Source of the DNA: Apostichopus japonicus
Taxonomy: Eukaryota; Echinodermata; Holothuroidea; Aspidochirotida; Stichopodidae
DNA: 64,000 bases
NCBI RefSeq assembly: GCF_037975245.1
Contig: NC_092576.1
Coordinates: forward strand, 28,135,611 to 28,199,610
Direction of reading: 5' to 3'
Positions 10,953-53,809 of the stretch are shown here, piece by piece; the stretch's first letter is position 1; each line of letters begins with the position of its first letter. Made by a program: the position numbers and the translations under genes. Below the pieces are notes generated by a model. The model had not been told where the DNA came from. It was given only the letters and a program-made list of their open reading frames with translations, and did not search any database.

Positions 10953-10997
10953 ATGTATATATTTGGCAGATTTTGTGTGTGTGTAACAAACCCAAAA

Positions 10998-15833: not shown

Positions 15834-16383
15834 TAGGAGAGCCTTTCATCTTCTCATTGCCTGTCGTCGTTGATAGTGTGGTGAATTTAACATACGTTAC
15901 CTGACAAAAAAGGTAAAGAAATCTGTCATTTCACAGATTACCACAAAGTTGATTGAAATGTATTATTATTTCGCCTAAAGTAAAAAGCGGTATTCCATTG
16001 ACCGTATCAAGTTGATTATTAGCATTGGATTGGTATGTTTTTTTGTACTGTTGATATTCATTATCGCTTGTGTACCTTAATCAACTAATTGAGGCCATGT
16101 TTTGGTGTCATTTTTGCAGATTGTTTCAACGTGTAAGTGATCCTGCATTTGGGATCCTCAAAACATTAGTTGACCTCATCATTTTCCATGCGTTCAACTG
16201 AAACAAGTTATAAATATGTTTGATACGGATTATTTCATAGTTTTGAGACCTACCACGGTATTGACACGAACATTCCAGGCTAAAATGACGTTTGTTATGG
16301 TTATGTGTTAATGTGTTCTACTTACTACGTACTTAAGTATTCTTGTCTGATGGTAACTGTTCCATCAGTACCCCAGCGCCGTC

Positions 16384-17372
16384 TTATTGGTTATTCTGAT
16401 TACGTGACACATTCTCGTCATACTGCAAAGAGGAATACCAACGTAGGTAAGATATATATTCAAGAAGAATTAGAAGAGTAAGAAAAAGAATAGTAAGATG
16501 AGACAGAAGGAAGAGGAATAAGAATACTTACCTGTGTTGATTTGTGCACAGCTTTTTGTGCCTTCTGCAAAGTGGCCTTCCCTCTCGCAATGTACGTTCG
16601 CAATCGGTGCCTTTTCACTAATCGCGCACATCTGGGCAATCTAATCGTTCAATGATACCGAGTAGTACTTTTGCTCCTTCTTCTAAGGCCATTGAGAATC
16701 CTGCAAAGACACATCAGACTTAGCTACATGCAAGCTAATAACTTACTCAAACACGATTGCGACGATATTTGCTGCTTGTAGTTATGTGTGGTGCAAAGTA
16801 TTCCAAGTGTTTAACGAAGTCATTTGCACACTCGAAAATTCTAAGAGATTATGTATTTTCATATGGGTAAAAAATCTTGTTATTTTTACAGTAGTTGCTG
16901 ACATTTCTAAAAGAAGAATATCTATGTGGCGAATAAATCACGACGTCACAATTTCTATGCAATCCATTCTGCTTATATCTAGTAATTAAATGTTGAAAAT
17001 TTCTATAGCTAACGAGCATCGTTTTTTCAGATGAACGCTGAATATATGCTGTGATGATAAGTATATGGGCTAATGTTTGGAACACGGTTTTCTTTGCGTT
17101 ACAAATTTGTTTATGTACTACCAATTTCGACTATTATTACAATACGTTTTCACAGAGGTAGTGTTAATACACATATTCATTATGATGCCTGGGTTCACGT
17201 CGCTTAACTCTTCAACGGCTTTCCTCGTATGTCGGTTGGTAGCCAGTGCCACCTTCGCGTCTGTCAATAGCCGGTCACGTTGTCTAATAAAGCTGCTATA
17301 TGTACGACTCTTCAGAAGACCGTAACTGCTGCTGACGGCTGTGACAGACAGTACAAGCGCGGCTTGGCTCAT
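16384..17372 (-). pseudogene. Three-exon unknown gene family, inverted copy (frameshifted)
   Basis: Exons by splice sites on the minus strand: 17372-17189 (ATG, 61 codons plus one base, then a GC donor, CCCAG/GCATCA), 16700-16532 (acceptor TTTGCAG, donor GTAAGT) and 16422-16384 (acceptor TTTGCAG, stop after NVSRNQNNQ). Exon 1 reads MSQAALVLSVTAVSSSYGLL and later ATNRHTRKAVEELSDVNPG, as in the other copies. Exon 2 is 7 nt shorter than in the copy at 36714-36889, which throws it out of frame and brings a stop before the conserved HQLRMYI part. The splice signals are intact, so the damage is recent or the frame is repaired in another allele. Function unknown. Confidence 0.6.
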
Positions 17373-17869
17373 TGTATATCTGGATTGATTTGTATACTAA
17401 GTGAAAGTTAATGAGAGACTTTTCATTGAAATGATTATTTTGCAGTCTATTGATTTGACCTTGGATTGGATATTAGGGTTACTAGTTTGTCTTAAGGGAA
17501 TGGAAATGTTTATAAAAAACCAATACCAATGGTACATTCACATTATGGGTGTATGAACCTGTGGAGTATAAAATTAGACGTAAATTTGATAGGAAAACAT
17601 CTTTATTTATCGGTGTGCAACAATGACGTCAAACCTGTGTGCTCCAAGTTCACTTTTGGTACAAAAGGTCGCAACTTCAACTGTCAATATCTAAAAAAAG
17701 GTTCATAGGAATTGAATGCAAATTTCACCAGAATGGTTAGATTATGTTCATCGTTAACATATCAAAACACAGGTTTGACCTGGACTATTCTTTTAAGTCA
17801 GCATGAAAAGTTCCAAGGTTCAAGATAACTTTATACAAAGATAGCTAGAAAGATAGAGTTTTTAGAGGT

Positions 17870-18320
17870 TTTGGCTGCGTTAGAAGATCGCCATCAATTT
17901 CCACCCGCCTCTTTATAAATTAATTACCTAGTACCATAACTTCATTTCCATCAGGATTGAGCTTCAGGGGTAACAAAACGAGACATCCAATTCTGAACGG
18001 TAGTTAAAAAGAAATTAAACCGCATCACGGGTCAGAGCTGTATTGCTGTTTGCAATCAAAATGCTATCTAGAATATCCGGCAACTTTCAACCTTCAAAAT
18101 GAAAGGATCTCAAATAAATAACACCGGGCCCAACACAGAACCCCAAAGAACACACTGTCTGGTTACCATAGTAACGGAAGTGAGCCAGTTAAACACAATG
18201 CCTGATAAAACCAATAACATTGGACAAAATTTGACTAAGCAAAGAGTGATCAACATTGTCAAATGCAGCACTAATGTCTAGTAAACGTAGGACAGTGTCA
18301 GAAGTCATGTAAATATCACT
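17870..18320 (-). mobile_element. CR1/L2-like LINE reverse-transcriptase fragment
   Basis: Minus-strand translation gives VLRLLDISAAFDNVDHSLL, the motif-A region of LINE reverse transcriptases (catalytic Asp in the LDISAAFD stretch). Further on comes LKLNPDGNEVMVLGN, matching the common LKLN..KTEV...G block. The frame is broken by stops between them, and the YADD box is not seen. The fragment lies beside the end of the inverted block. Confidence 0.75.
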
Positions 18321-18404
18321 CAATAATCAACCGATTCACACAGAGATTACATTAACTACTGTAAATCTTAAAGTTTTGTTCCACAATAAAAACTGGATTG
18401 TGCT

Positions 18405-19256
18405 CAGGGGCGGACTGGGTCTTAAAACCGGCCCGGGCATTTTTCAGCTAGACCGGCCCATTATTCATTGCAATGTTACTCACATCGTGATGGCCGTCCT
18501 GGGGGAGGGGTATAAATGAAAAATTTTTGAAGTTAAGGAATGCCTAGAGGCAAAATGGTGCTATATTCTCAAGTTTGTAGGTTACAATAATCCTTTAAAA
18601 AAGACCCAAAAATAATTTTCCAGAAGCAGCATTTGATAAAACTGACAACAGTTAAAAAAGTAAACAAATATAGACAAAAATTCATGTTTTAGACTAGATT
18701 TTATCTAGTTTTTCAAGCATTTGGTGATAACATACTTGAAAAATATGGAAAAAAAACGAAATAAATCCAGCAAAACATATATGTTCATAAGAAGATTACA
18801 TGTCATGTCTACGAGAGTAGGAGCTTACGCGGTTCGCTGCTTCTGGCAGCCCCACCATCAATGATATTTTTAGGTTCAAATGTGGCCAAGATCCTTTTTC
18901 CACAGACATCAACATGAACGCCTCAAGATGTTCTTGTGTCATTGTACTTCTCAAACGGGTTTTTGATTCTCTTCAAGGCAAAGAAAGAACGTTTACATTG
19001 ATCTTCGTACTTGTATATCTTGTCGTACAAATCATAGCACGGACGGGTTGCCAATAGCACGTTCTTTTGTTACGAACTAACAGGCTTACTAACATGGTGA
19101 TTTCATGAGCTGATTCCCACAGTTAAAAATATATTTCTACATAGCCCGTCTGTATTCTATTAACTACTGTGAAAATGGGCTGTAGTTTCACCAGGCTCCA
19201 CAGCCCACCGGCCCATCGGGCACGGCCCAAATGCCCGTGTGGCCAGTCCGCCACTG
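18405..19256 (+). mobile_element. hAT-type DNA transposon, internally deleted, with both termini
   Basis: Left end CAGGGGCGGACTGGGTC and right end GGCCAGTCCGCCACTG form imperfect terminal inverted repeats of the CAGNGGCGGACTGG type known from hAT elements. Length 852 bp. The minus strand near 18900-19020 encodes CKRSFFALKRIKN and, in a shifted frame, RSTMTQEHLEAFMLMSVEK, the C-terminal dimerisation region of hAT transposases, so it is a decayed remnant. The octamer ACCAACAC follows the right end at 19257-19264. The left flank no longer shows it. Confidence 0.85.
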
Positions 19257-19346
19257 ACCAACACATACTATTGATTTATCAGACAATTGATGAGGAATAC
19301 ACTACTCCGACCTTTTACTACACTGTTAATTGTATCATCGATTTAG

Positions 19347-19865
19347 CTCATTAACATATTCCAAATCCCGATTTCGGTGATGATTGACATATGAAGATAC
19401 ATCACGTACAATCACCTGACAAGGCGCGCGAATAATTTAATAGTTCCAAAATTACGAAACTATCAAGCTAGCAAGGTTGTTCATCATGATTATGTCAATG
19501 GTAATTATGAACAGTTACTTGCAAACAGATTTCGGTGTAACAATAAGGCTGAAAAACTGATATGTCAATGACGTGCAATTATCTCAATGTAAAGTGGGCT
19601 TGTCTACTCAAACACGTGGAGCTATAGTATAGGAAAACACATGCAACTGCAGAGGCAGGCCTACAGTACGTACACAGACGCAATAACCTACTCCAGTTAC
19701 ACCATAAACAAAGATGATATTGTTTTGCAGTGAGGCCTACTGTAAGGTTACGTTTAACATATACCTATTCAAATCGACATATTATCGACTAAGCTCATTA
19801 ATATATTCCAAATCTCGATTTCGGTGATGATTGACATGTGGAGATACATCACGTTTAGTCACCTT
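19347..19865. repeat. Direct repeat pair of about 72 bp (19347-19418 and 19793-19865)
   Basis: Both copies read GCTCATTAA(C/T)ATATTCCAAA, then GATTTCGGTGATGATTGACA and GATACATCACGT, with a handful of differences, 446 bp apart. They flank a stretch with no gene. They might be remnants of terminal direct repeats of a lost element. Confidence 0.65.
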
Positions 19866-20879
19866 AACCATTGAACTAGCGCTCGTGCCCGGTTCGTCTC
19901 AGATCCCGTGGTGGATCGCTGGCCGATGACCGCCGGTCGATTAGTATCGGTGGTGTGTGGATGACTGTCGCTACTGCGGGCCGCCGATTTGGAGGTGGTG
20001 GCAGAGGAATGAAATGGACAACCAACGAAATCAAAAATGGAAGTGTTATGAAGTCTGCAAGTAAGGAGAAGAAAGCTGCTTGTGTCCTAGGGTTAGCTTA
20101 AGGGAATTACAAAGCTGGCATTACTTATACATGTAAAGACTTGCTAATATGATTAAAGGATAAAGCTAGAGATGAGGAGAGTGGTTTTTGGCAGTGGGGC
20201 TGTGGCTTTTGTGAGGTGAGGAGCGGAGGTAATAAGGAGAGACAACGAAAGGGAGAAGCCGAGGTTGTATGAGAGGATAGCAGTGATAGTGTTGCAAGGT
20301 ATCATAGGTTGTTATGAAGGCTTTATGTTTTGAGATTGTAGAAGGAAGTAGTGACATTTTGTGGAGTCCGATAATAAAAGAAGAAAAACATCGAATAACA
20401 TTGTCCTGAATCTATTACCCCAAACAACGTAACAGGAAGTAAAAGTAGATATTAGCACACTCTTTTCATGTAAACCTTATGTCTACCTAATTTCTACCCT
20501 TTTCCCTCCGTACATTGGAGAGGCTTCATTGACCCACGAACCTCAGCGCCTCCTTTAACACTCGAGCCTGACTTTCAATGGACATTTATTCACTTACTGA
20601 TCTATATCTCCAGAATGCTATATGGGAGAGATGGTGGGGTTTAATACGGTAAAAATACATCACACTTACGTGACCAGCTGTCTTAAACTCCACGCTGAGT
20701 AGAATTTTCCTATCATAATTGAGGCGGTATCAGAGTCTTCATTGATTGCTGTATAAGTCGGATGCCATATTAAGCAGCTGGTCGAATGAACACACTGCCC
20801 TGATTTGCCGCTACTTGATTCATATCGACCAATCGCGGCCTATCTTTGGATTGTAGTGAAGAGCCATGTATCTGGGAGT

Positions 20880-21100
20880 TAGGGAACAACTCCCTGCGCT
20901 GCATGGACGTAGCGCTAATGCCGCGCACATCGGACAACCCATCGCCCTAGGACTATGATATACTAGAAATGCGCAATCCTTGGCCGTTAAATTAAGGAGA
21001 GCCCTAGTCTTGATGTGTTTAAAACTAGATTGCCACGCATTGTTTCCAGCACTGCTGCGCTGCATCCGTTTTGCAAGATTTCGTTTTGGCATGGTTGGTT
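20880..21100 (+). mobile_element. LINE 3' end remnant in copy A
   Basis: Homologous to the better preserved tail at 32890-33125 (shared CGCAATCCTTGGCCGTTAA and TTGATGTGTTTAAAACTAGA). Frame-disrupting changes relative to that copy mean no continuous C-terminus can be read here. Confidence 0.6.
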
Positions 21101-23054
21101 GCAATATCACATTCAATTCTTTAATTGTAATAGCAACATAATTATATCGACAATATATGTTGTTATGGAGAGCTACCTCAGGCTTTCGTATATGTCATTG
21201 CGTTCTAGCTTTTTTTCTCATTGCTGTTTTTATTTTATCAGATAAGTCTCTTTTACCTATAAAGTGCATCAAGGCTAATATTGATCTTTCTTGGGTAAGC
21301 TGATATATGAACTGTCATTGTTCTATGATATACAAAAGCCTAGCCAATTGCTTGTTGATTTCAATGTAAGCTTAATAACCAAAATAACGCAAAAATGTAC
21401 GTTCCTACATTGATAAACAAAAGAGACAGGAATCCAAAATCCTCTAATAGAGGATTGAACCATGAAAGTTGGTTTTCCCATCATCATTGGCAAGAAATAT
21501 TTTACAGAAGCTTTGTACAGTATCCCATTAGGAAGCACAAGGAAGGGAAAAAACAAATCCAGACATCAATTGAACCTCCATGAATGTTTTTGTTTTCAAA
21601 TAAAATTATTCCGAGCTGACTTTTAACTCAAATTAAATATTAAATACTGTACGATATTCAATTTTCTCAATTTTCACCTAAGCTGTTTATCTTTAGTAGT
21701 TTCTTCATGTCAATTTAATGGAGACAATTTAGTTTGATAATCATTTATGAACGTTATCAACATTTGATTTCAATAAAAACAAATAATTCGACCGGGGAAG
21801 TACTCAATATAGACATTTGGTTTCACAGCTGCAAGATAAATACTAACAACTTTGATATCCAGCTAATTTACTAAAAAAAACACGACTGTATGAAGTATGA
21901 AGTGGAAACTGTTTGCTGGTTGGTGCCGTTTGTTGTTTGATCAGACGTTTTGGGATGACTTTAAATTGAAGTTTAGTGTTGATTTGTAAATCGCGGACAA
22001 CAAAGGAAACATTCGGGCAGACAATAGGACCTAGACGTGCCCGGTTGTAGAAAAGTAACCTTTAAAATACAGTTAGTGATTCTTCAAAGCTTTAATATAC
22101 GATAAAGTTATCTTGAACCTTGGAACCTTTCATATCATATACGTTTGAGAGACAGACTTACAGCTGCCGATAATCTGTTAATAAAAGGTTTGTTTCAGAG
22201 CTTCATAGGACGTATCAGCACTACATGTCTAAGGATAAAGTTGATATTTCATGAACCGTGAGTACTTCTTATTTATTAATAACAGCTTCATGAATACGTT
22301 TTCTTTCTAATAATACCAGTCGGCAATGACTACTAATGTCAGATACTTATTTCATTTCAAGATAAAAATAAAATAAAAAACTGAGTCAAGGTAGCTCATA
22401 TTCTTTCTGCTTAATTGCGAAAATCAACAAAGTTGGGAGAGGTAAATTTAACGATTATCTTAGCGTACTTTGAAAGAAGTAAAGATTCATGTGATTAAAA
22501 ACCTCGGTGGAATTCATATCCTGATATGAACTGTAAGATACCTGATCTTTGTCGGGTAGAATGTATTCGAGGTTTCGTTAAATACAAAACGGCATTAAAA
22601 GTTCAACGAATTTTGTATCAATAAACCCAGCCATGCTGACTTAAAAGAATAGTCCAGGTCAAACTTTTGTTTGATGTGTAAACGATGAACATAATCTAAG
22701 CATTCTGGTGAAACTTGCATTCAATTCCTATGTACCGTTTTTGAGATATTGACAGTTGAAGTTGCGACCAAATTTGTACCAAAAGTGAACTTGGGGCACA
22801 CAGGTGTGACGTCATTGTTTCACACTGATAAAATAATGTTTTGTTTTCCTATAAACTTTACGTGTAATTTTATACTCCACAAGTGAATATACCCAAAATG
22901 TGAATGTACTGGTATTTTATAGACTCCCCATCTCTTTTAGACAAATTAGAAACCCTATCTAATCCAAGGTCAAATCAATAGACTGAAAAATATCATTTCA
23001 ATGAAAAGTCTCTCATTAACTTTCACTTAGTATAGAAATCAATCTAGACATACA

Positions 23055-25572
23055 ATGAGCCAAGCCGCCCTTGAAATGTCTTTCACGGCCGTCAGCAGCA
23101 GTTACGGTCTTCTAAAGAGTCGTACATATAGCAGCTTAAGAAGACAACGTGACCGACTATTGACAGACGCGAAGGTGGCACTGGCTACCAATCGGCATAC
23201 GAGGAAAGCCGTTGAAGAGTTAAGCGACGTGAACCCAGGCATCATAATGAATATGTGTATTAACACTACCTCTGTGAAAACGTATTGTAATAATAGTCAA
23301 ACTTGGTAGTTGTGACGGAGATCATTTCCTTTTGACATATCTGGTGCTGAGGGCGCTATTTCAGAATTGGAGTTAGAACTCGTGTTTTTTCAGAAAGCAA
23401 AGAATTTTTAACCTGCACGATATCAGTAGATTCCATCCTCTTTTGTACAACGTTTTATTACTGAATATCCATCCAAGAGTTACAGTCTACCTTGATTTAA
23501 CAAATTTCATTATTGGAGAGTCACAGTCATGTAAGTTTTGTGTTGAAAATTGAGTATTCCCTTTGTAAAAAAAACCGAAGGTAGCCAGTGTCCCCTTTGC
23601 GGTGATTAATTGGGACTATTGTACCGGTTGCACGAAAGTTTTCCCTGGGATCCATATTTTCCTATAGGGTCTTTACGTTTCGTTAGTGTGTCTTTGCACT
23701 GTCCCCAGGGGTTATCCCGTTATGTTCTTTTTATACCTCCAGACATTTTTACATTGTTTTGTCATTTTGACAGGAGTTATAGGTGTAATTTGGTGGTTTT
23801 CAGGTTTGGGTGTTCAGAAATTGGGGGTGTTCGGAAACTGGCTCCCTTTTGTTTACTCGGTAAATTATGTATGATTTGTGTACTTCGTGATGTTTATTTA
23901 CATTATTTAGCTCCACTAGGCTATTTTACAGTACAGGAGTTGGTGTATATACTGTATGGTTTTCTGTTAGTTGTTGAAACTAGACGTTGTATTCTTCCTC
24001 CTTTACAGGATTACACCTTTTGCCATGTCCTGTATTTTCACAGATCTTGCAGACTCCTTTTTTTTGGTCGAGTCACTCTGCATCATTGATAAGCAGACTT
24101 AATGCATTCATTGACCCTACCGGTCCGGCCCTTAAAGTGTCAAGGCCCTTTCACACATTTCATGTGTTGCCATTTCCTTTATGCTAGGCCTATGTTCTTT
24201 GTTCTTATGATCTATTATATCACGTACAAGTATGATTCATTATTTTTTGTATATTACCTTGGTACTGTACACATATTCATTACTTTCAGGTGTTCTTACA
24301 GTTTTGTAATCTATTGATTATTTGTTTTGACCTAGTGGCTCAGTCGGGACAAGCCATTTGTTTTACGGTACTTTCTCTACATCAATTTTCCATGTACATT
24401 TACATGTGCTGTTGTACCTTTAGAGTATAGACAACCAACCAAACATGTTTTCCTTGTGTGTATGAGACACCAGGTGTCTTTGTGTCATCTACCATGTTCA
24501 ATACACTTTCATAGGTTTTTTATTGATCATTTTCCTATTTACTAAGTAGCTTTTCTACACATTCTCATTATTCTGTTGTTAACCCAACTGGTTCTCATAT
24601 TTTATCACATTTTCTCATTTCAAGCTACCGGATGTTATCAGACGGCTGTTCCAGTTCTACCAGTATCTTATAATATATTTGAAGTTATATATCTTGCATG
24701 TTTTACTTGTGAGTAAGATGTTTATGAGTCGTTTTATATTATATCTCAACAGTTCACCGTTGAAGTACAATAAAGTGGAAACCATTGCTCAGACCCTTGG
24801 CCGCTTCTTTTTTATTTTCATCGGTTGACACTAACTGGTTGATTACAATATTACCGGTTCTACACATTGGCCAGTACAGTAGTACATAGACACATTTGTA
24901 ACTCAAGGGAAACCGTGTTTCATACATTAGCCCATACTCATCATCACAGCATATATTCAGCCTTCATCTGAAAAACGATGCTCGTTAGCTATAGTAATTG
25001 TAAACCTTTAATTACTAGGTAGAAGCAGAATGTATTTCATGGAAATTGTGACGTCATGATTTATTCGCCACATAGATATTCTTCTTTTAGAAATGTCAGC
25101 AACTACTGGACAAATAACAATATTTGTTACTCATATAAAAATACATAATCTCTTAGAATTTTCGAGTGTGCAAATGACTTCGTTTAACACTTGGAATACT
25201 TTACACCACACATAACTACAAGAATTGCCTGGATGTGCTCAATTAGTGAAAAGGCACCAGTTGCGAATGTACATTGGGAGAGGGAATGCCACTTTGCAGA
25301 AGGCACAAAGAGCTGTGTACAAATCAACACAGGTAGGTATTCTTCTTCCCCCTCTTCTGTCTCATCTAAGCCCTTCCTCTTACTTTTCTAATTCTTCTTA
25401 TTATTTGACTATATCTTACCTACGTTGTAATTCTTCTTTACAGTATGACAAGTATGTGTCACGTCATCAGAATAACCAAGACCAGGATGATGAACTGACA
25501 GAACCAGATTGTACCAGTATCAGTACCAGTACCACACTGGGTACTTGTGAAGATGAAGTAGCTATAGAATAA
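23055..25572 (+). CDS. Three-exon unknown gene family, copy A (exon 2 shortened, intron holds a solo LTR)
   Basis: Exon 1 23055-23238 (MSQAALEMSFTAVSSSYGLL ... SDVNPG) ends at a GC donor, CCCAG/GCATCA. Compared with the 36 kb copy, about 150 bp including the original exon 2 acceptor and first 22 codons are deleted. An AG at 25221-25222 (TACAAG) now precedes AATTGCCTGGATG and is in the correct phase, so a shortened exon 2 (25223-25332, LPGCAQLVKRHQLRMYIGRG) could still be spliced. Exon 3 is 25444-25572 (YDKYVSRHQNNQ ... acidic tail, stop), lacking the 18-residue repeats. Spliced product about 140 residues. Whether it is expressed is unknown; it may be a pseudogene. No family recognised. Confidence 0.45.
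23306..24883. mobile_element. Solo LTR with 5-bp target duplication
   Basis: A 1568-bp unit, 23311-24878, starts TGTGACGGAGATC and ends GGCCAGTACA, the TG...CA ends of LTRs. It is flanked on both sides by GTAGT (23306-23310 and 24879-24883). The matching place in the other block copy, near 36290-36300, reads AATCAAACTTAGTAGTACATAG with no insert, giving an empty-site comparison. A polyadenylation signal AATAAA lies at 24769-24774. No gag or pol is seen, so LTR-LTR recombination left only the solo LTR. Strand is probably plus, from the AATAAA position. Confidence 0.88.
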
Positions 25573-26569
25573 TTAGCAATACAGTACGTAGTTAGTAGAA
25601 AACATTAAAACATAACCTTACTTACAAAACGTTATTTTAGCCTGGAATGTTCGTGTCAATACCGTGGTAGGTCTCAAAACTATGAAATAATCCGTATCAA
25701 ACATATTTATAACTTTTTTCAGTTGAACACATGGAAAATTATAAGGTCAATTATTGTTTTGAGGATCCCAAACGTCGGATAAATTACACATTGAAACGAT
25801 CTGCAAAAATGAAACCGAAACATGGCCTCAATTAGTTGATTAAGGTACACAAGCGAAAATGAATATCAATAGTACAAGAAGCATACCAATTCAATGCTAA
25901 TAATTAACTTGATACGGTCAATGGAACACCGCTTTTCACTTTAGGCTATATAATACATTTCAATCAACTTTGTGGTAATCTGTGAAATGACAATTTGTTT
26001 TCCTTTTTTTGTCAGCTAATGTATGTTAAATTCACCACACTATCAACGACGACAGGCAATGAGAAGATGATTTACTCTCCTGGGATATATATATAACACT
26101 AGATCTCTTAAGTGATCAACAGTACATGATATTGGCTGCAGGTCGAAATGTCTCATGTGACCAAACGCATTTCCTTCAAATACTGAATTAGTGTGGTTCT
26201 ACTTTCCCCAGTGGAAATAACACCTCTAACTTACAACGTGTGACGAATCAGCTCTAAATTCTGCACCAGAAGAACAAAATAAAGACATTTGTTTCGCTCC
26301 TCCGTGATTTTCAGCTAAGTGTGGACCAAGTGGGAGGCATTATTTAAAGTTCTATATGCAAACAACTTGTAGACTACGTAGAGAACGTTATTATAATATG
26401 TAAAGTTTTCATTATTTACAACGAAAACCAGCTTCACGAGCCAATGAGTTTCATCGTTTTACGAGTGTTGTTTAGTCTGTGCGCAGTATCGAAAGATGTA
26501 TTTCACATTTATAGAAAGCTATAGTCAATAAGGATATCATGCAGTTGAATTTTACTTACAGTACAACTG

Positions 26570-26946
26570 GTACCAAGGGAAGCAGGACACTTCGCCCAAC
26601 AACCATTTCGCCCAACTGCCATTTCGCCCAACCTTACCATTTCGCCCAACCAGCCTGCTCAGACTCCGATCGATATCGAGCGGACCTCACTTTTTTATTT
26701 ACCTATTACGAAGTAACCTAACCCAAAATAAATCAAATTGACCTAGTGGAATAGAAAAATTAATATTATTCTGACTGAATATTAGTAAAAATAAGGTTGG
26801 GCGAAATGACCAACACGGTTGGGCGAAATGACCATGCTGGTTGGGCGAAATGACCAGGCTGGTTGGGCGAAATGACCAGGCTGGTTGGGCGAAATGGCAG
26901 TTGGGCGAAATGGTTGTTGGGCGAAGTGACTAGAAAGCGTACCAAG
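26570..26946. mobile_element. Palindromic MITE built of GCGAAATGACC-type units, with 8-bp target duplication
   Basis: Left arm 26578-26660 has repeated CATTTCGCCCAAC units. The right arm 26790-26938 carries the same units in reverse orientation (GGTTGGGCGAAATG, seven times). The terminal part CACTTCGCCCAACAACCATT matches its reverse complement at the other end exactly. GTACCAAG occurs at 26570-26577 and 26939-26946. The other block copy reads GGTACCAAGCGGGAAGCATG at this point (38342 on), without the 361-bp insert. This is a non-autonomous DNA element with an 8-bp duplication. No transposase is seen. Confidence 0.85.
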
Positions 26947-27648
26947 CAGCAAGCTTGTCTATATCCAGTATATTCTGCAATCATTACGTATCTCTTGGAG
27001 GATTAAAAAGATATATTTCAGACATTGGTAAGCAGTAGATCAAATATATTTTTCGTTATCACCAACATATACAATTTTTCTTATCTAATATAAATATGTT
27101 AGTTGCAGTTTTAATAGTTTGATCCTTTTCAATATCGTTGTCAATGGAACAATAATCACAACGTCAACTGTAATCGCTATAAAATCATATAGAACTTTGG
27201 AACCTTTCGGACCACATAATTTTAGGTGACCTATCCTTGTCTTTTGCCTTGTCATTGTTTTATTTGTTTGTTTTTGCTGATTACCATGTTGAAAGGTTTC
27301 CTCAAATTCCTCATACCGATACAATATGGGCGGCCATTACTGCCAAAACAATATAAAAATAAATCATTACATTACATTCAAAATAAATGTAAGTGGTATG
27401 ACATTCATTTCTTACTTGTCGCTTGTGTTGCCTTTTAAAAGAGATGCATTATTTAAAGAAAATGTCATCATTCTCTTCTAATGTAAACACATATTCATGT
27501 AGGGGTATTTATCACCAATTACATCATCATCATCATCGTCATAGTGATCATCATACTGATTATGAGTTTGAACTTAAAGAAAGAACATTGATTAATGGAT
27601 ATCATTCATTCCTTTGGCAATCATAAATATAGTATTTCATATGAAGTA

Positions 27649-28085
27649 TCAGAAAGTTGTAGGGATGTCCCCTCCCGTTGTTATAACCAAAGAAGATATC
27701 CTGCTTTGAATAAAAGAACTGCTTCTTAAGAACAAATTTTCAACATCTAAAATAAAAGAGGCAGTTATGGAACATTTCCAAAATAAGTGCTCAATATTCT
27801 CAGTTTCAATTTTATAAAAGGTACAAAGATCTGAATCCCGTTTACCCATCAATGAAAGGAGCCTAATCGTGGCAACAATTCTATGAATAAATTTGAACTG
27901 GGAAAACTGGATTTTAGCTTCAGAGACAGTAGAATACGGCATATGAAAGAAGCGATGCCAGTCTCTGTAGGTTAAGTTGGTGAAGGTCGCATTCCACTTT
28001 TCAATTCCGGTTGTCTGATAGACGACGCAAATGGCGCATATAAAGTAGTTGGGAGACTGTTGAGGCTTTTAGAACTTCATTGAAT
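27649..28085 (-). mobile_element. L1/Tx1-like LINE ORF2 C-terminus, copy A
   Basis: The minus-strand frame holds FFHMPYSTVSEAKIQFSQFK, FIHRIVATIRLLSLMGK and ENIEHLFWKCS. The pattern (Q)FK.IHRI..TN..L..(M/I)G, then ..LC.FC...E...HLF..C is the zinc-binding region at the C-terminus of L1/Tx1-type LINE reverse transcriptases. Here the first Cys-X2-Cys has become CTFY. The upstream part KWNATFTNLTYRDWHRFF is readable in an adjoining frame. A broken copy paralogous to 39530-39870. Confidence 0.75.
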
Positions 28086-28545
28086 AGAATTATTTTGTCA
28101 TTATAAATATAATTAATAAAATATTAGTAATAAATATAGTAGTATTAATAATAAGTAGCATATATCAAAGTGTTGTATCGTGAAAAAAAACATGCTCAAG
28201 AGCACTGTGCAAAGAACGAATACCTGGAATATAAAATTACCAAACTTAAGAAAACCTAAAAGTAATAACAACAGCAATAAAAGTAAAAATGATATAAGAC
28301 AGGGTTATAAACCACAATAAAGAACATAAAAATATAAATATACATAACGAATGTGCACAGTAATCTGAATAAAACAACGTATAAGATTTATGCCGATACT
28401 CAAGCCTAAAAAGATAAGTTTTCAAATGCTTCTTAAAAGTGTCAATAGATGTGACATTTTTCAAGTGATGAGGAAGCGAATTCTATAGTTTAGGACCTGC
28501 TGCACTGAAGAACAATCTCCATATGTGACTTTGTTAGTACGAGGA
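28085..28545 (-). mobile_element. CR1/L2-like LINE C-terminus and 3' tail, copy A
   Basis: Read on the minus strand, 28500-28400 encodes the typical end AAGPKL..NSLP.HLKN followed by SIDTFKKHLKTYLF, though frame breaks interrupt it. After the stop comes a 3' UTR ending in CTTTGCACAGTGCTCTTGAG and ATT repeats at 28085-28160, a CR1/L2-style tail. It lies directly upstream of the L1/Tx1-like fragment, so the CR1 copy seems to have inserted into that older LINE. Confidence 0.7.
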
Positions 28546-31500
28546 CTATATGGAGCAGATCCAAAAATGAAGGTAAGTGATAACATGCTTAAACAAGTAT
28601 TACCTTAGGGACTTTTACCTCTTTTCTCTGACAATGGTTAACTTTTCGAGCGGATGAACACTACTCTAATTGTGGTTTGGTACCTACATGCGGGCTTGCT
28701 GCTACTGTAAATTAGTGGCGCTTCTACCCTAAACGGAAGTTGCTACTATCCAACACATGCTCTTTCTTTGCTCTGCACTACCAGGAGGTCGCGGCTATTT
28801 ATAGATTAGTTGGAAACTCCATAGAAACTGTAATAGCAACCAACCCTTTTATTAAATGGTTGTCTTTATTGTATAGTTACAAGCCAATCAGATGTTGCTT
28901 GATTCTTTCAAGTATAGAACGATTCTGTTCATTTTTTGTGGGACCGTTCCACTAAATGGGGGGGGGGGATGGGGAGGGAGGCTACCTATGACAGTAAGAG
29001 GCCCGTCTGCCGAAAACTGACCCCTCCCCTTGAAAAAAGTACACAAACTTACTTACTAATGAATTACAAGTTATTTTGGAATTATAAGGGACTGTGAATT
29101 GTTTTGGTAACAGTTCAATGCTTTACATTCTAGAACTGTTTGTTTATAGTGCACATTAGTATAGTGAGTTCTACGCAACAATCATCACTGAATAGAATGG
29201 TTGACCTAGTGGTTAGTTGAGGAACACATGTTACCGTGTTACGAACACAAAGTAGTAATTACTGATGCACGGCAGTTGTGGGACATGACCAGTAGTAGCT
29301 TTACCAGCTACTGTATGAGTATCTGCTGGGTGCATGCCTACCCTAGCGCACGCAAGTGAGGGATGGACGAACACTTTGAAGGACAGAAGCATGTAAAATA
29401 AAAAAATTTCAATTAGCAACTGCTTTCATTAACTGACCTTTACTAACAATGATGACAAAGGCATGTACATAGTGTGAATATGAATGTAGATGTAGCACCC
29501 CTAATATTTCCCAATAGTAGTGTCTATAGTTTTGTCCCCCTGTATAATATACCTTTCCTCTTAACTTTTCTTTTCCATTTACTTCTTATCTCTTTGTGGT
29601 ATTTTCTAGTAACGCTCACAGAGTCAGTGAACTGTGTGCATTACCCCTCAGTGGACTAGTTTCCTGCTAAAAGGACCATTAAGCCCTGTGTGGTTTGGCT
29701 TCACACTTAGATTACTCTTAGGTTACGCTAAGCTAGTGATAATTTATCTGTTATTCTCAACACTAACAGACCAGGCCTTGTTTTATTCTCCCTTAAGTGT
29801 AGTAAGTGTTTTCACGCTCTCTGTAATCTCTGGTGGAGTAAGTTAAAGATGTGGGAAGACAGTTTATCTACTTCCTGGAGTATTGGTAGCCAGTCTTAGA
29901 AAAATCTTGTCTGGTAGGGTGGGATAACAACCTTCCCTTTGTTCAAAGAAATGGCTTAAAACAGCTAAGTTTGCAAGCAACTCTACCATTCACCAAGACA
30001 CTCCAAGTCCTGTACCGGACTGTACCAGTTTTCATTAGAAATTAATTTTTAATTTAGAAATTAATTATATTAATTTCTACACAGGTAAGAGTTCATCTTT
30101 TGACTTTGCCACAGGCCCTTCAGTAGCTTGTTCATTTTCATTGTGCATACATAGAGTATTTTACTTGCAAATGTATACATGTTAGTTCTGTGCTGGCCAT
30201 GTGCACACAGAATATTTAGCAGCCCTCATTAAGTGTATGGTGTTGTATTTATTGTTGTTCCTGTGATGGCTACGTGCACACAGACTTAAGTTATTAATTA
30301 AACGTTTTGTACCTGTAATGGCTATAGAGAGTCTACAGGTGAGATCATTATTATTGTTACCTGTTGTTTTATAGTATGTTTATAGGGTTGATTATGGCAC
30401 TTGTACTGCCCTCAACCGTTGCCATTATGTGTGTTGTTATGTTCTAACCTACATTGAGTTAAAGTAAGAGTATTGGAAGTACTTAGGTTTTTTGGTCTAA
30501 CGAGAACCCACATTGGGATATTTATTTAGTTATTATGTACTATTACGATACGTCTAGCATTACCTGTTACCGTAATGTACTCACGTTCGTATCTATTTGT
30601 TCTAAGTTTTCCTATTCAAGCTATGTTTAGATTTCATGATGCAATGCTACACTTTTACTAGTTGCCATGGTGATAGGGATAGCTGAATTTCTGCAAACCT
30701 TTATAGTTGAAAGAATTGTAGCAATATGTTAGTAGGCATATTGACTATTTTGTGGACCGAGACTCTATTGTTGTTGTTTATTAGAATTAGAGTATTAGCA
30801 TGTATTTAGCCCTGTGAGTCACCCTTCACTGGTACAGACTCCATCTGACCAGATATATACAGCAGATAAGCTAGGTGACATAGTTTCCGTTTTATAGCCT
30901 GCTCTTAGTTCCAAGTGACGTTTAGGTACCTGCAGCCTAACAAAAGGTGTCAGTTGCCATGGCAACCTTAGGTCTAAGTAGTAAGAGGTGCATGGGTTGA
31001 ATCACATAGTTAGTATGCTACTGTTGTTGCTACGATTGCTAGCTGAGGGATTTCCCCAGTAGTACATTATTTATACTTGTAGACTTCACGTAAGTCATAG
31101 AGGTTGTATTGATTTTAGAATTAATCACTCGCCTCTATTTGGATATTTTCGTAAGTGGAACTAGGGCAACCAGCTTCTAGTAATATATTTGTTAACCTAC
31201 GACATTCCTAGATTATACTGCTATACCAGATAGGGATAGACAGTTTCACTTATTTATGGAGCACTGTGTTATTGCTGTTTGAGTAACATAGGCAAGTAGT
31301 TGTATGTTTAGCGATCAGTTGTGTATTAGTGTCTACGTCTCGGAAGGTTCACTTTATTTGAATACTTTATAGTTGACTTGTTGTCATGCCGACCAGGTAT
31401 GATGGGTTGTACCATATGTTTTACTCCTTATGAGGTAATTAGGTTGACATTCGCTTATACTATTTCATTATTGTTGTGTCACCCTTACTGATTATCTTTG

Positions 31501-32354
31501 TTGTATATTATTGCATATTTCATACTTATTTTAATTGCTAAGTAATTGTTTGTTTACTGTGGGAGATCGTTAATCCCCTTGCCCTTTGTTTAGTTCGTTT
31601 TTATTGTGTTGGCATTGCATGGTGACCATTCACCAAGACACTCCAAGCTGCCATGCACCTGGCTGTGCCAGACTGTACCAGTTTTCATTAGAAATTAATT
31701 ATATTAATTTCTACACAGCTTATTCATATGTAGTTGATGTAGTTTTCACCTATCGAGGGACCGTGCCTATAGATGTCCTATTATACGGTAGTTTTAGACG
31801 CCGGAACCCCCACGCCTGGTCCGGGTAACCAAGGACGCATGATGTACCCCCACTAGTAGATGCCATTCGTGGACTGAGGGACTGATCCTTTATTCGACGA
31901 GATGGGCGTGACTCCCAAGCTATTAGTTTTAGTAGGCCATTAGTGTTAGGCCATGATGATTTTCATGTGTTAATTATGATTTAACTTTATTTGCATTTTA
32001 TATATTTTCAATCATTTTGCATATCGTAATTCTCTTTTACCGTATGGTGAATAAATCATAGTTACCCTGCGGATTACGATAGAACATTGCGTTTGTCCTC
32101 ATTTTAATATACTGTGTTATTATATCTTCACAAAGGCAGGCGACTCATCACAGAATTGAACCCCGCTTCCCTTGATCTTATGTATCTCGTGGTTGCGTTA
32201 CCAGCACATATTTAGTCTTAACACTAAGTGCTACATAGGCATTACAAGGAGAATCCAATCCGTAAGGACAGGTCGACCCTTTCACATCGCCGGGCGAACA
32301 ACGGATGATCGGTACTGAACCGACTGGTAAACGCTGAAGTAGATATCCTGTGAC
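28546..32354. other. Spacer between the two direct block copies; no gene seen
   Basis: AT-rich DNA with stops in all frames. It holds a G-run near 28960-28970. A direct repeat pair at about 29987-30083 and 31624-31719 shares ACCATTCACCAAGACACTCC and CAGTTTTCATTAGAAATTAA, then TTAATTTCTACACAG. An AATAAA lies near 32050. TGTAGCACCCC at 29491 resembles an LTR start, but I could not find a matching end or target duplication, so an LTR call is not made. No protein motif was recognised. Confidence 0.5.
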
Positions 32355-32889
32355 GGTTCGTCTCAGATCCCGTGGTAGATCGGTGGTGTGTGGATGGCTG
32401 CCGCTACTGTGGGCCGCCGATGTGGAGGTGGTGGCAGAAGATTGAAATGGACAACCAACGAAATAAAAAATAAAAAAGTTAAACTAGATATTACCTTTTC
32501 AAGTAAACCTGCTACCTAATTTCTAGTAAACAAATATGCATCAGAATACAATATTTCACGTCTAAATTTCGGGGATTACCGTAGACCCATCTCCCTCTGT
32601 ACATGGGAGAGGTTTCACTGACCCACGAACCTAAGCCCCTCCTATAACACTCGACACGAGCCTGACTTCAATGCACATTTCTTCACTTATATACTGATCT
32701 ATATCTCCAAAATGCTTAATATGGAAGAGATGGTGAGGTCAGGGAGCTGCTACTCTAGCAGCTCCCTGGTATCAGCGTCTTCATTGATTGCTGTGTAAGT
32801 CGGACGCAGCTGGTCGAATGTACACATGGCCCTGATTGGCCGCTACCTGATTCATCTCGACCAATCGCAGCCTACCTTTGGACTGTCGT

Positions 32890-33130
32890 GAAGAGCCATG
32901 GACCAAGGAGTTGTTACGGAACAACTCCCTGCGCTGCATGGACGCACATCGGACGACCCATGCCCTAGGACTATAAAAGACTGGAATACGCAATCCTTGG
33001 CCGTTAAGGAGAGCCCTACTCTTGATGTGTTTAAAACTAGATTGCCCACGCATTGTTACTATATCACTGCTGCGCTGCGTACCAACATCCTCGTTGTGAT
33101 ACCCCTAATTGAACCTCTATGATTTTTATT
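32890..33130 (+). mobile_element. LINE ORF2 C-terminus and tail in copy B
   Basis: Frame 32898-33122 reads DDPCPRTIKDWNTQSLAVK, then ESPTLDVFKTRLPTH. The RTIKDWN....V..SPTLD.FK.RL pattern is a common C-terminus of non-LTR reverse transcriptases. Upstream catalytic parts are missing. Part of this tail (from GCCCTAGGACTATAAAAGAC) is repeated at 34413 by the tandem duplication. Confidence 0.7.
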
Positions 33131-35863
33131 CAAATAAAATTATTCAGAGCTGACTTTAAGCTCAAATTAAATATTAAATACTGTACGATATAACCTTTTT
33201 TCTTTTAAACCGCAACTGTTTATCTTTAGTAGTTTCTTTATGTCAATTTAACTGAGACAATTTAGTAACTTGATAATCATTTATAAACGTTATCAAAATT
33301 TGATTTCAATAAACACTAATAATTCGACAGGGGAAGTATTCAATATAGATTTGATTTCACCTGCAAGATAAATACAAACAGCTCTGATGTCCAGCTAATT
33401 TTTTTTTTAAACAAATCCAATGGTTGAAGTATGAAGTGGAAACTGTTTGCTGGTTGGTGCCGTTTGTTGTTGATCAGACGTTTTGGGATGACTTTAAATT
33501 GAAGTTTAGTGTTGATTTGTAATTCGCGGACAACAAAGGAAACATTCGGGGCAGACAACAGGGCCTAGACATGCCCGGTTGTAACAAAGTAACCTTTAAA
33601 ATACAGTGAATGATTCTTCAAAGCCATAATCTGCGATGAAGTTATCTTGGACCTTTGAACCTTTCATATCGTATACTTTTGAGAGATAGACTTACAGCTG
33701 CCGATATTCTGTCAATAGAAGGTTTGTTCAGAGCTCGTAGGACGCATCAGCACTACAGATCTAAGGATAAAGTTGATATTTCATGAACCGTGAGTACTTC
33801 TTTTTATTAATAACAGCTTCATGACTACGTTTTCTTCCAATAATACCAGTCGGCAACGACTACTTATGACAGATACTTATTTCATTTCAAGATAAAAATA
33901 AAATAAAAAATCGAGTCAAGTTAGCTCGTATTCTTTCTGCTTAATTGCGAAAATCAACAAAGTTGTAAGAAGTTAATTTAACAATTAACTTTGCTTTGAT
34001 AGAAATAAAAATGGGATTCATGTGATTAAAAACCTCGATGGAATTCACATCCTGATATGAACTGTAAGATACCCGATCTTTGTCGGGTAGAATGTATTCG
34101 AGGTTTCGTTAAATACAAAACGGCATTAAAAGTTCAACGAATTTTGTATCAATAAACCCAGCCATGCTGACTTAAAAGAATAGTCCAGGTCAAACTTTTG
34201 TTTGATGTGTAAACGATGAACATAATCTAAGCATTCTGGTGAAGCTTGCATTCAATTCCTATGTACCGTTTTTGAGATATTGACAGTTGAAGTTGCGACC
34301 AAATTTGTACCAAAAGTGAACTTGGGGCACACAGGTGTGACGTCATTGTTGCACACTGATAAATAATGTTTTGTTTTCCTATCAAATTTACGTCTAATTT
34401 AATACTCCACACGCCCTAGGACTATAAAAGACTGGAATACGCAATCCTTGGCCGTTAAGGAGAGCCCTACTCTTGATGTGTTTAAAACTAGATTGCCCAC
34501 GCATTGTTACTATATCACTGCTGCGCTGCGTACCAACATCCTCGTTGTGATACCCCTAATTGAACCTCTATGATTTTTATTCAAATAAAATTATTCAGAG
34601 CTGACTTTAAGCTCAAATTAAATATTAAATACTGTACGATATAACCTTTTTTCTTTTAAACCGCAACTGTTTATCTTTAGTAGTTTCTTTATGTCAATTT
34701 AACTGAGACAATTTAGTAACTTGATAATCATTTATAAACGTTATCAAAATTTGATTTCAATAAACACTAATAATTCGACAGGGGAAGTATTCAATATAGA
34801 TTTGATTTCACCTGCAAGATAAATACAAACAGCTCTGATGTCCAGCTAATTTTTTTTTTAAACAAATCCAATGGTTGAAGTATGAAGTGGAAACTGTTTG
34901 CTGGTTGGTGCCGTTTGTTGTTGATCAGACGTTTTGGGATGACTTTAAATTGAAGTTTAGTGTTGATTTGTAATTCGCGGACAACAAAGGAAACATTCGG
35001 GGCAGACAACAGGGCCTAGACATGCCCGGTTGTAACAAAGTAACCTTTAAAATACAGTGAATGATTCTTCAAAGCCATAATCTGCGATGAAGTTATCTTG
35101 GACCTTTGAACCTTTCATATCGTATACTTTTGAGAGATAGACTTACAGCTGCCGATATTCTGTCAATAGAAGGTTTGTTCAGAGCTCGTAGGACGCATCA
35201 GCACTACAGATCTAAGGATAAAGTTGATATTTCATGAACCGTGAGTACTTCTTTTTATTAATAACAGCTTCATGACTACGTTTTCTTCCAATAATACCAG
35301 TCGGCAACGACTACTTATGACAGATACTTATTTCATTTCAAGATAAAAATAAAATAAAAAATCGAGTCAAGTTAGCTCGTATTCTTTCTGCTTAATTGCG
35401 AAAATCAACAAAGTTGTAAGAAGTTAATTTAACAATTAACTTTGCTTTGATAGAAATAAAAATGGGATTCATGTGATTAAAAACCTCGATGGAATTCACA
35501 TCCTGATATGAACTGTAAGATACCCGATCTTTGTCGGGTAGAATGTATTCGAGGTTTCGTTAAATACAAAACGGCATTAAAAGTTCAACGAATTTTGTAT
35601 CAATAAACCCAGCCATGCTGACTTAAAAGAATAGTCCAGGTCAAACTTTTGTTTGATGTGTAAACGATGAACATAATCTAAGCATTCTGGTGAAGCTTGC
35701 ATTCAATTCCTATGTACCGTTTTTGAGATATTGACAGTTGAAGTTGCGACCAAATTTGTACCAAAAGTGAACTTGGGGCACACAGGTGTGACGTCATTGT
35801 TGCACACTGATAAATAATGTTTTGTTTTCCTATCAAATTTACGTCTAATTTAATACTCCACAC
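32962..35863 (+). repeat. Tandem duplication of a 1451-bp unit (32962-34412 and 34413-35863)
   Basis: The second unit begins with GCCCTAGGACTATAAAAGAC at 34413 directly after AATACTCCACAC, and the same AATACTCCACAC closes the second unit at 35863. Line-by-line reading of several hundred bases found no difference between units, including a ten-T run. This means either a very recent duplication or an assembly duplication. Copy A has only one unit. Confidence 0.9.
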
Positions 35864-36044
35864 GTGCATACACCCATAATGTGAATGTACCATAGGTATT
35901 GGTATTTTATAAACTTCACATTCTCTTAAGACAGACTAGTAACCCTATCCAATCCAAGGTCAAATCAATAGACTGAAAAATATCATTTCAATGAAAGGTC
36001 TCTCATTAACTTTCACTTAGTATACAAGTCAATCCAGCCATACA

Positions 36045-37480
36045 ATGAGCAACGCAGTCTTTGAACTGTCTTTCACGGCCGTCAGCAGCAGTTACGGTCT
36101 TCTGAAGAGCCGTACATATAGCAGTTTAATTAGACAACGTGACCGACTATTGACAGACGCGAAGGTGGCACTGGCTACCAATCGGCATACGAGGAAAGCC
36201 GTTGAAGAGTTAAGCGACGTGAACCCAGGTATCATAATGAATATGTCTATTAACACTACCTCTGTGGAAAGGTATTGTAATAATAATCAAACTTAGTAGT
36301 ACATAGACACATTTGTAACGCAAGGAAAACCGTGTTTCAAACATTAGCCCATACTCATCATCACAGCATATATTCAGCCTTCATCTGAAAAACGATGCTC
36401 GTTAGCTATAGAAATTGTAAACCTTTAATGACTAGGTATAAAGAGAATGGATTTCATGAAAATTGTGACGTCATGATTTATTCGCCACATAGATATTCTT
36501 CTTTTAGAAATGTCAGCAACTACTGGACAAATAACAATATTTGTTACTCATATGAAAATATATAATCTCTTAGAATTGTCGAGTGTGCAAATGACTTCGT
36601 TTAACACTTGGAATAACTTGAATCACACATAACTCCAAGCAGAAAATACCGTCGCAATCGTGTTTGAGTAAGTTATTAGCTTGCATGTAGCTAAGTCTGA
36701 TGTGTCTTTGCAGGATTCTCGATGGCCTTAAAAGAGGAAGCAAAAGAACTACTGGATATCATTAAACGATTAGAGTCCGAATTGCCTGGATGTGCTCAAT
36801 TAGTGAAAAGGCACCAATTGCGAATGTACATTGCGAGAGGGAATGCCACTTTGCAGAAGGCACAAAAAGCTGTGCACAATTCAACACAGGTAGGTATTCT
36901 TCTTCCTCCTCTTCTGTCTCATCTAAGTCCTAATTCTTACTTTTATAATTCTTCTTATTATTTGAATATATCTTACCTACGTTGAAATTCCTCTTTGCAG
37001 TATGACGAGTATGTGTCACGTCATAAGGAAAAAAAACAACAGACTGATCAACGGACTAGCGAGAATGCGTCAGGTGGTCCGAAAAAACAACACCAGCCTG
37101 TTGAATCGACTGGCGAGTATGTGTCAGGTGGTCCGAAAAAACAACACCAGACTGTTGAACTGACTGGCGAGAATATGTCAGGTGGTCCCAAAAAACAACA
37201 CCAGACTGCTGAACTGACTGGCGTGTATGTATCAGGTGGTCCGAAAGAACAACACCAGACTGTCGAGTATGTGTCACTTCAGCAGAAAAACCAATACCAG
37301 ATCAGTACCAGTTCCAGAACCTTTCTGGGAACCGCTAGAGGAGCTATTGGTTATACGATACTAAAGTACGTAGTTAGTAGAAAACATGAACATTTTATCC
37401 TAAAGAAACGTCATTTTAGCCTGGATTATTCGTGTCAATACCGTGGTAGGTCTCAAAACTATAAAATATTCCGTATATAA
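36045..37480 (+). CDS. Three-exon unknown gene, intact copy (279 residues)
   Basis: Exons: 36045-36228 (donor CCCAG/GTATCA), 36714-36889 (acceptor TCTTTGCAG, donor ACACAG/GTAGGT) and 37001-37480 (acceptor CTTTGCAG, stop). Phases 1 and 0 agree, giving 840 nt. Exon 1: MSNAVFELSFTAVSSSYGLL, then a basic and charged stretch to SDVNPG. Exon 2: FSMALKEEAKELLDIIKRLE and HQLRMYIARGNATLQKAQKA, probably helical or coiled-coil. Exon 3: YDEYVSRHKEKK, four tandem 18-residue repeats of the kind EYVSGGPKKQHQTVELTG, a Gln-rich linker, and a tail GTARGAIGYTILKYVVSRKH. There is no signal peptide, catalytic motif or transposase motif that I recognise. Copies at 16384-17372 and 23055-25572 keep exon 1 nearly unchanged. 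Function unknown; it may be a host gene carried by segmental duplication or cargo of an undescribed element. Confidence 0.65.
37061..37270 (+). repeat. In-frame 54-bp coding minisatellite (about four units)
   Basis: Units start at 37061, 37115, 37169 and 37223. Each encodes (E/V)(N/Y)xSGGPK(K/E)QHQ(P/T)(V/A)E and, in the first three, a closing (S/L)TG. The fourth unit passes into EYVSLQQKNQYQ. The unit length is a multiple of three, so copy number can change without breaking the frame. It is absent from the other two gene copies, whose exon 3 is short. Confidence 0.9.
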
Positions 37481-39284: not shown

Positions 39285-39399
39285 TATGTTTTCGAAAGCT
39301 GGAAGTTCTTAAGTAGTTGAATATTCAATACTGATTATGAATTTATAGGAAAACTCATTGATTAATGGATTTCGTTCATTCCCTTTGCAATCATAAATA

Positions 39400-53805: not shown

Positions 53806-53809
53806 CAAG

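What the first reader, a model, noticed from the sequence alone, without database searches (positions are those of the whole stretch)
16384..37480. An unrecognised three-exon gene family with protected exon 1, present in three block copies
Seen: three copies (16384-17372 minus, 23055-25572 plus, 36045-37480 plus) share exon borders and phases. Exon 1 from about residue 11 to 61 is almost unchanged in protein, while the differences there in DNA are mostly silent. The first ten codons vary with amino-acid changes. Introns and flanks carry indels of hundreds of bases. Known: such a pattern fits a coding gene under constraint. Inferred: this may be a new small gene family riding on segmental duplications, or cargo of a large undescribed element.
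Basis: partly seen in the sequence, partly recalled or inferred. Interest (0 to 1): 0.72.

Follow-up and report, generated by a model that had tools for sequence, protein, structure and literature searches.

The report
Local trio of small sea-cucumber genes
Three neighbouring copies of one small helical-protein gene in a sea cucumber, two of them visibly damaged, share a distinctive exon with a nearby gene that carries an NHL propeller domain, so the family looks like a small offshoot of a known kind of gene and not an unknown mobile element.

Summary
Partly confirmed. Three copies exist: A 17372-16085 (minus), B 23055-25835, C 36045-37614. Exon 1 codons 11-61 are protein-conserved (7.5 silent, 2.5 replacement changes on 36.7 and 116.3 sites; p 0.0003-0.003 by rounding; border post hoc). 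But A is frameshifted in exon 2, B lost 139 nt with the exon-2 acceptor, A and B read GC at the intron-1 donor, and exon 2 looks neutral. A probable fourth exon was missed. In the genome (671.58 Mb; by inference Apostichopus japonicus) gene-body DNA matches only these three places, against mobile-element cargo. Exon 2 of C is exactly 176 nt, phase 1 to 0. So is exon 2 of a complete NHL-propeller gene 19 kb away (59751-56760, minus) and of a gene at 11.29 Mb on the same chromosome. Against C exon 2 these score 37-69; the other matched segments (108 in all, C included) score -18 or less. Exon 1 shows no such similarity. Best reading: NHL-less relatives of the helical front half of an NHL gene, copied locally; C possibly functional, A and B decaying. 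No transcript data were available.

The parts
36045..36228 (+). Copy C exon 1 (61 codons + 1 nt, phase 1, donor GTATCA)
36714..36889 (+). Copy C exon 2 (176 nt, phase 1 to 0; acceptor TGTCTTTGCAG, donor GTAGGT)
37001..37351 (+). Copy C exon 3 (open; contains 54-bp in-frame minisatellite 37006-37263; 3' end unresolved)
37502..37614 (+).
23055..23238 (+). Copy B exon 1 (intron-1 donor position reads GC)
25223..25332 (+). Copy B remnant of exon 2 after a 139-nt loss (36640-36778 in C); an AG at the junction would keep the frame
25444..25540 (+). Copy B exon 3 (3' end is one of six options listed)
25723..25835 (+). Copy B candidate exon 4, open
17189..17372 (-). Copy A exon 1, open (intron-1 donor position reads GC)
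16532..16700 (-). Copy A exon 2 with 7-nt deletion, frameshifted
16384..16422 (-). Copy A exon 3, short (YDENVSRNQNNQ stop)
16085..16197 (-). Copy A exon 4 with in-frame TAA
35660..35983 (+). Dispersed repeat (about 320 bp) just upstream of exon 1; also 22678-22993 (B) and 17436-17758 (A)
59571..59751 (-). Gene N exon 1 (60 codons + 1 nt, phase 1)
58895..59070 (-). Gene N exon 2 (exactly 176 nt, phase 1 to 0), homologous to copy C exon 2
58418..58478 (-). Gene N exon 3 (61 nt, phase 0 to 1)
56760..57643 (-). Gene N exon 4: NHL beta-propeller, best solved matches TRIM2 NHL chains

Best explanation
The three copies are paralogues of one small host gene made of a helical front half (exon 1, one long helix; exon 2, two helices joined by a short turn) and a variable tail. 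SHOWN: exon 2 (176 nt, phase 1 to 0) is shared with a complete NHL-propeller gene in the same window (N) and with a gene at 11.29 Mb on the same chromosome (P); gene-body DNA was found only at these three places. SHOWN: A is broken, B has lost part of exon 2, C is open. INFERRED: the family arose from, or shares an ancestor with, the helical front end of an NHL gene, lost or never had the propeller, and was copied locally by segmental duplication. INFERRED: the helical part is an oligomerisation module, so C most likely works by pairing with itself or with the front half of NHL paralogues such as N, as a regulator or competitor without an effector domain; A and B are decaying copies. Exon 1 is the part for which selection is visible.
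For: Genome-wide: exon 1 protein has 3 matches at E<=1e-3, all in the window; exons 1+2 at E<=10 give 7 matches, six in the window copies plus P (E 0.64); P searched back at E<=10 gives itself and window C exon 2 (E 1.4) only; gene-body DNA only the three copies. Exon-2 homology: same length and phases in C, N and P; among 108 AG-176-GT open segments (about 264 kb plus locus L031) scores against C are, besides C itself, P 69, N and N' 37, next best -18; shuffles C-P 0 of 20000, C-N 0 of 20000, P-N 1 of 20000. N is a four-exon, 433-aa open frame with NHL (Pfam E 1e-5, 25.7 bits against cut-off 20; TRIM2 NHL chain E about 5e-11). Exon-1 constraint. Helical models, best pLDDT 82 and 83. Damage in A and B.
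Against: Exon 1 shows no detectable sequence similarity between C, N and P (1004, 917 and 2253 of 5000 shuffles score as well for C-N, C-P and N-P). The genome-wide hits that led to P (E 0.64 and 1.4) are not significant alone. C and N exon 2 are only 22% identical, and no constraint is seen on exon 2 among A, B, C. The C intron-1 donor (GTATCA) is weak on a recalled matrix (90th percentile of all GT in the window) and A and B read GC, so splicing of intron 1 is uncertain. The structure models come from three-row alignments, have pTM 0.43-0.45, and the other four models average pLDDT 69-75. No transcript, peptide or orthologue in another species could be examined. The role as partner or competitor of NHL proteins is inference only.
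Confidence: 0.55

Rival explanations
1. All three copies are pseudogenes of a once-functional gene; the exon-1 signal is history from before or between the duplications, and copy C is merely open by chance or recency.
For: A and B carry disabling changes, exons 2 and 3 look neutral, the C intron-1 donor is weak, the exon-3 ending differs between B and C.
Against: Copy C keeps exons 1, 2, 3 and 4 open, with a strong exon-2 donor and acceptors that look good by eye; changes private to C in codons 11-61 are two silent and no replacement (read).
Confidence: 0.3
2. Only exon 1 matters: a short protein of about 83-84 residues reading on from exon 1 into what is called intron 1, or exon 1 spliced to other, unseen exons.
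For: Exon 1 alone shows constraint; the frame runs on past the donor for 22-23 codons (hand reading of the alignment and the and 2 sequence; stop-to-stop frames of 91-92), and GC/GT at the donor would then be a silent change.
Against: Past codon 61, C differs from both A and B by one silent and four replacement changes (hand reading of the alignment), so constraint seems to stop at the proposed border; P and N have a phase-1 donor at the end of their first exon too.
Confidence: 0.1
3. Cargo or coding part of a large undescribed transposable element.
For: The copies lie in both orientations among transposon remnants; a high-copy repeat abuts exon 1.
Against: Gene-body DNA was found only at these three neighbouring places in 671.6 Mb and the protein likewise; the two other copies of the flanking repeat that were read (3.1 kb each) do not carry the gene.
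Confidence: 0.03

Closest known systems
TRIM-NHL proteins (TRIM2, TRIM3, TRIM71, Brat)
   Same: The neighbouring gene N carries an NHL propeller whose best solved matches are TRIM2, TRIM3, Brat and TRIM71; a helical front half before it resembles the coiled-coil plus NHL layout (recalled).
   Different: No RING or B-box in the N model (Pfam). No NHL was found in the C model of exons 1-3 or the B model of exons 1-4, and tblastn of the NHL exon at E<=1e-3 finds only N in the window. The helical part matches no Pfam family above cut-off.
Other NHL genes on the same chromosome (C16:4.57, 6.86-7.14 and 24.17 Mb)
   Same: NHL exon 45-57% identical to that of N.
   Different: The one upstream region read (2.5 kb, L046, the gene's strand) has no such 176-nt exon but a sub-threshold death-effector-domain match. 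The others were not read.
Lineage-specific genes on segmental duplications (general class, recalled)
   Same: Three local copies, direct and inverted, with decay of some.
   Different: Distant homologues within the genome are detectable through a shared exon; other species were not examined.

Membership tests
TRIM-NHL family (copies A, B, C) | RING and B-box domains | tested here: not met
   Pfam scans of the C model (exons 1-3) and the B model (exons 1-4) found neither; A was not scanned, being frameshifted
TRIM-NHL family (copies A, B, C) | C-terminal NHL propeller | tested here: not met
   No NHL in the same Pfam scans; tblastn of the N NHL exon at E<=1e-3 finds only N in the window
TRIM-NHL family (copies A, B, C) | Coiled-coil dimerisation region | tested here: inconclusive
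   Exons 1 and 2 modelled apart are helical; no Pfam match above cut-off; oligomerisation not testable
TRIM-NHL family (gene N) | NHL propeller | tested here: met
   Pfam NHL above cut-off, TRIM2 NHL chain E about 5e-11
TRIM-NHL family (gene N) | RING and B-box | tested here: not met
   None in the 433-aa model; an upstream exon outside the model is not excluded
176-nt helical-exon family (C, N, P) | Exon 2 of 176 nt, phase 1 to 0, ungapped similarity | tested here: met
176-nt helical-exon family (C, N, P) | Similar exon 1 | tested here: inconclusive
   Same end phase and similar length, but no significant sequence similarity
Transposable element or its cargo | Dispersed copies with common ends | tested here: not met
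   Gene-body DNA found at three neighbouring places only; the tool warns that its DNA search skips very common words
Functional protein-coding gene (copy C) | Transcript with the predicted junctions | not testable with these tools
   No RNA data available

The most novel reading that the evidence does not exclude
A stand-alone helical module, split off from NHL-propeller genes and lacking any catalytic or binding domain, is kept under selection in exon 1 while its first ten residues and its tail diverge fast, acting as a dominant partner or decoy of the NHL proteins encoded about 19 kb away.
Probability: 0.15. Interest if true: 0.55.

Novelty: new variant of a known kind. Interest (0 to 1): 0.33.

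Why it matters
It shows that an apparently orphan gene family can be tied to a known class of genes by one exon of conserved length and phase where domain and structure-sequence searches give nothing. If copy C is expressed, the cluster is a natural test of how NHL-type genes shed their propeller and yield small helical by-products. It also argues against the mobile-element reading.

Tried and rejected
Pfam, PDB and viral-contig searches for the spliced protein gave nothing credible. Rows dropped before saying so: Pfam EIF4E-T (E 0.0012, 18.3 bits against cut-off 28.5), DUF6809, DUF1664, DUF5054, TagH_C, T2SSF, Mis12, CCDC-167, SBBP, TetR_C_35 and DUF5128, all below their cut-offs; PDB chains 9qdo_A (E 0.26), 6zyw_P and 8g0p_A (E 0.76 and 0.78). 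A coding scan of the B/C block for further exons put exon 1 first; the hit at 37507 led to candidate exon 4; the one at 39366 and the rest were not pursued. The 'FEPLKSKC' matches to P exon 1 right of the window sit in stretches with stops and were dropped. A region upstream of an NHL exon at 7.0 Mb was read for the 176-nt exon and had none. No NHL was found within about 4 kb downstream of P exon 2. Species name: inferred from assembly size, scaffold number, longest chromosome and mitochondrial contig, not given by any tool. Paper searches (listings; PMC10344927 passages; PMC13228809 abstract and outline) showed nothing on this family in what I saw; that is no proof of absence. Mistakes mended: one exon-2 count used a wrong frame and was redone; one B exon-3 start was off by one base (right); the row 'intron1 as frame continues' is out of frame with exon 1 and was not used; the exon-1 comparison was replaced by that.
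Full report
Where the window lies. The window is G000:C16:28135611-28199610 in a 671,581,487-bp, 35-contig genome. Contig C35 is 16,099 bp long; its first 10 kb reads open under the echinoderm mitochondrial code (frames recognised by eye as cox1, cox2, atp6, cox3, nad4, nad5 and cob). Size, scaffold count (34 in print, here 34 plus the mitochondrion) and longest chromosome (46.04 Mb here, 46.02 Mb in print) fit the Apostichopus japonicus assembly (PMC10344927, passages read). The name is an inference.

The observation. Blocks carrying the gene lie at about 11.4-17.8 kb (inverted, A), 19.9-28.5 kb (B) and 32.4-40.3 kb (C), 80-95% identical in the pieces over 300 bp. Exon 1 is open in all three. 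In codons 11-61 there are 7.5 silent and 2.5 replacement changes on 36.7 and 116.3 sites (binomial p 0.0003 with 2.5 counted as 2; about 0.003 as 3, own arithmetic); for the whole exon 9.5 and 9.5 (p 0.006, or about 0.02 rounded up). The border at codon 11 was picked after seeing the data. Positions 1+2 of codons 11-61 carry 1 change against a window median of 12, with 0.45% of 1562 overlapping windows as low. In the window scan the best stop-free windows are in frame with exon 1; one minus-strand window over the same stretch, with stops, scored slightly better. Codons 1-10 carry 9 changes in 30 nt, above the noncoding rate of 0.131 per site. So the 'protected exon 1, variable first ten codons' statement stands, with modest statistics.

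What does not stand. Copy A exon 2 has lost 7 nt and runs into a stop; its exon 4 has a TAA. Copy B lacks the 139 nt that correspond to 36640-36778, which in C include the intron-1 acceptor and the start of exon 2; an AG at the new junction would keep the frame, but by eye it has no pyrimidine tract. At the intron-1 donor C has GT while A and B have GC. Exon 2 changes are neutral in proportion: A/C 5:11 (p 0.30), B/C 1:4, A/B 3:8; the first codons of exon 3 carry replacements only. A B/C coding scan pointed to a further exon: behind TTGTTTCAG, from 37502, a frame EHMENDKVNYCFEDPKRRINYTLKRSAKMKPKPSLN-stop is open in C and, nearly the same, in B, and broken in A. By hand count B and C differ there by three silent and three replacement changes, so support is moderate. 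The exon-3 donor is unresolved: one search lists 17 frame-keeping options for C and 6 for B.

Copy number. The 61-aa exon 1 finds exactly three places in the genome at E<=1e-3, all here. The 120-aa exon 1+2 at E<=10 finds the same copies and one weak match (E 0.64) at C16:11.29 Mb. A tblastn of exons 1-4 against the window and the fetched neighbourhood gives the three copies and otherwise only matches at E 0.15 or worse. Gene-body DNA 35990-37620 gives seven pieces, all in the three copies. The larger DNA query 35866-38360 gave 44 matches: eight in the three copies and 36 elsewhere, all within the first 120 bases, the end of a dispersed repeat; only 40 of 290 candidates were scored, so repeat counts are lower bounds. 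In the two other copies read, the repeat is about 320 bp long (window 35660-35983) and the gene is absent from the 3.1 kb fetched. An element reading for the gene itself is thereby not supported.

The link to other genes. The weak match (P) has an exon of exactly 176 nt with acceptor CTCTTTTCAATTTAG, donor GTGAGT, phases 1 and 0, preceded by an ATG exon of 196 nt ending in phase 1. Ungapped it is 32% identical to C exon 2 over 59 columns. Searched back genome-wide at E<=10, P finds itself and C exon 2 (E 1.4) and nothing else. A second weak match lies in the window (E 1.1): gene N on the minus strand, exons 59751-59571 (181 nt), 59070-58895 (176 nt), 58478-58418 (61 nt), 57643-56760 (884 nt), a 433-aa frame with one terminal stop. 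Its last exon is an NHL propeller (Pfam above cut-off; TRIM2 NHL chain E about 5e-11). As a control I took every AG-176 nt-GT segment with an open phase-1-to-0 frame in about 264 kb around and including the window plus locus L031: 108 segments. Against C exon 2 the scores are C itself 287, P 69, N 37, N' 37 (N' is a copy of N at 28.249 Mb with a 97% identical NHL exon), next best -18. With P as query the next best after C, N' and N is -9; with N as query it is -19. P was in the set because it had already been found; N and N' lay in DNA fetched beforehand but had been noticed by tblastn. Shuffles: C-P 0 of 20000, C-N 0 of 20000, P-N 1 of 20000. Exon 1 gives no such signal (C-N 1004, C-P 917, N-P 2253 of 5000 shuffles as good), so homology is shown for exon 2 and suggested for exon 1 only by place, phase and length.

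The NHL side. N exon 1+2 at E<=10 finds N, N' and a damaged copy at 28.234 Mb, nothing else. N against N' has dN/dS about 0.20 in exons 1+2 (4 silent, 3 replacement) and 0.47 in the NHL exon (8 and 14). The NHL exon has 33 matches at E<=1e-3 genome-wide, 20 of them on C16. The one upstream region of another cluster that I read has no 176-nt exon on the gene's strand but a sub-threshold death-effector-domain match. Copies A-C have no NHL match in the window at E<=1e-3.

How it may work. A helical front half before a propeller is the usual oligomerisation part in TRIM-NHL proteins (recalled). The likeliest working of an NHL-less copy is therefore self- or cross-association, as a regulator or competitor; this is inference. 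The alternative that all copies are dead is kept at 0.3.

Verdict. A small local family with distant relatives in a known class of genes, two of three copies damaged, no evidence for a new element, function unproven.

Noticed in passing
window 43784-53806 (minus): LTR retrotransposon, Gypsy type by domain order (label recalled), with LTRs of about 1720 bp 99.4% identical; zinc knuckle, RT, RNase H and integrase domains found.
   Followed up: partly
window 32959-34413 and 34410-35864: 1.45-kb tandem duplication at 99.93% identity just upstream of copy C, very recent or an assembly effect.
   Followed up: no
window 18405-19260: Sequence with terminal inverted repeats of hAT type (CAGTGGCGGACTGG-like; label recalled, seen by eye); 18408-18834 is related to 10996-11413 at 75%.
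   Followed up: no
window 27649-28068 (minus): Remnant of a LINE-type reverse transcriptase end (zf-RVT, 26.6 bits, just under the cut-off of 27.5); the matching DNA in block C (39328-40341) holds a frame with no Pfam match of its own.
   Followed up: no
window 23311-24877: A 1.6-kb insertion in intron 1 of copy B absent from A and C.
   Followed up: no
window about 17123-17215 (A) and 23212-23304 (B): A and B are 98% identical over 93 columns around the end of exon 1, above the neighbouring windows (89-92%), which may reflect gene conversion between the inverted copies.
   Followed up: no
window 53.9-64 kb with L014-L021: Large tandem segmental duplications right of the window; gene N and its copy N' lie 54.3 kb apart, and the longest matching pieces are 92-99% identical.
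   Followed up: partly
L046 (C16:7008047-7010546): Upstream of an NHL exon an open frame with a weak death-effector-domain match (Pfam DED E 2.4e-4, 21.7 bits against cut-off 35.9): a possible DED-NHL gene cluster.
   Followed up: partly
window 37006-37263: 54-bp minisatellite inside exon 3 of copy C, unit a multiple of three, not reported by TRF in A or B; four of the units hold a phase-1 GT (CAG|GTGGTC).
   Followed up: partly
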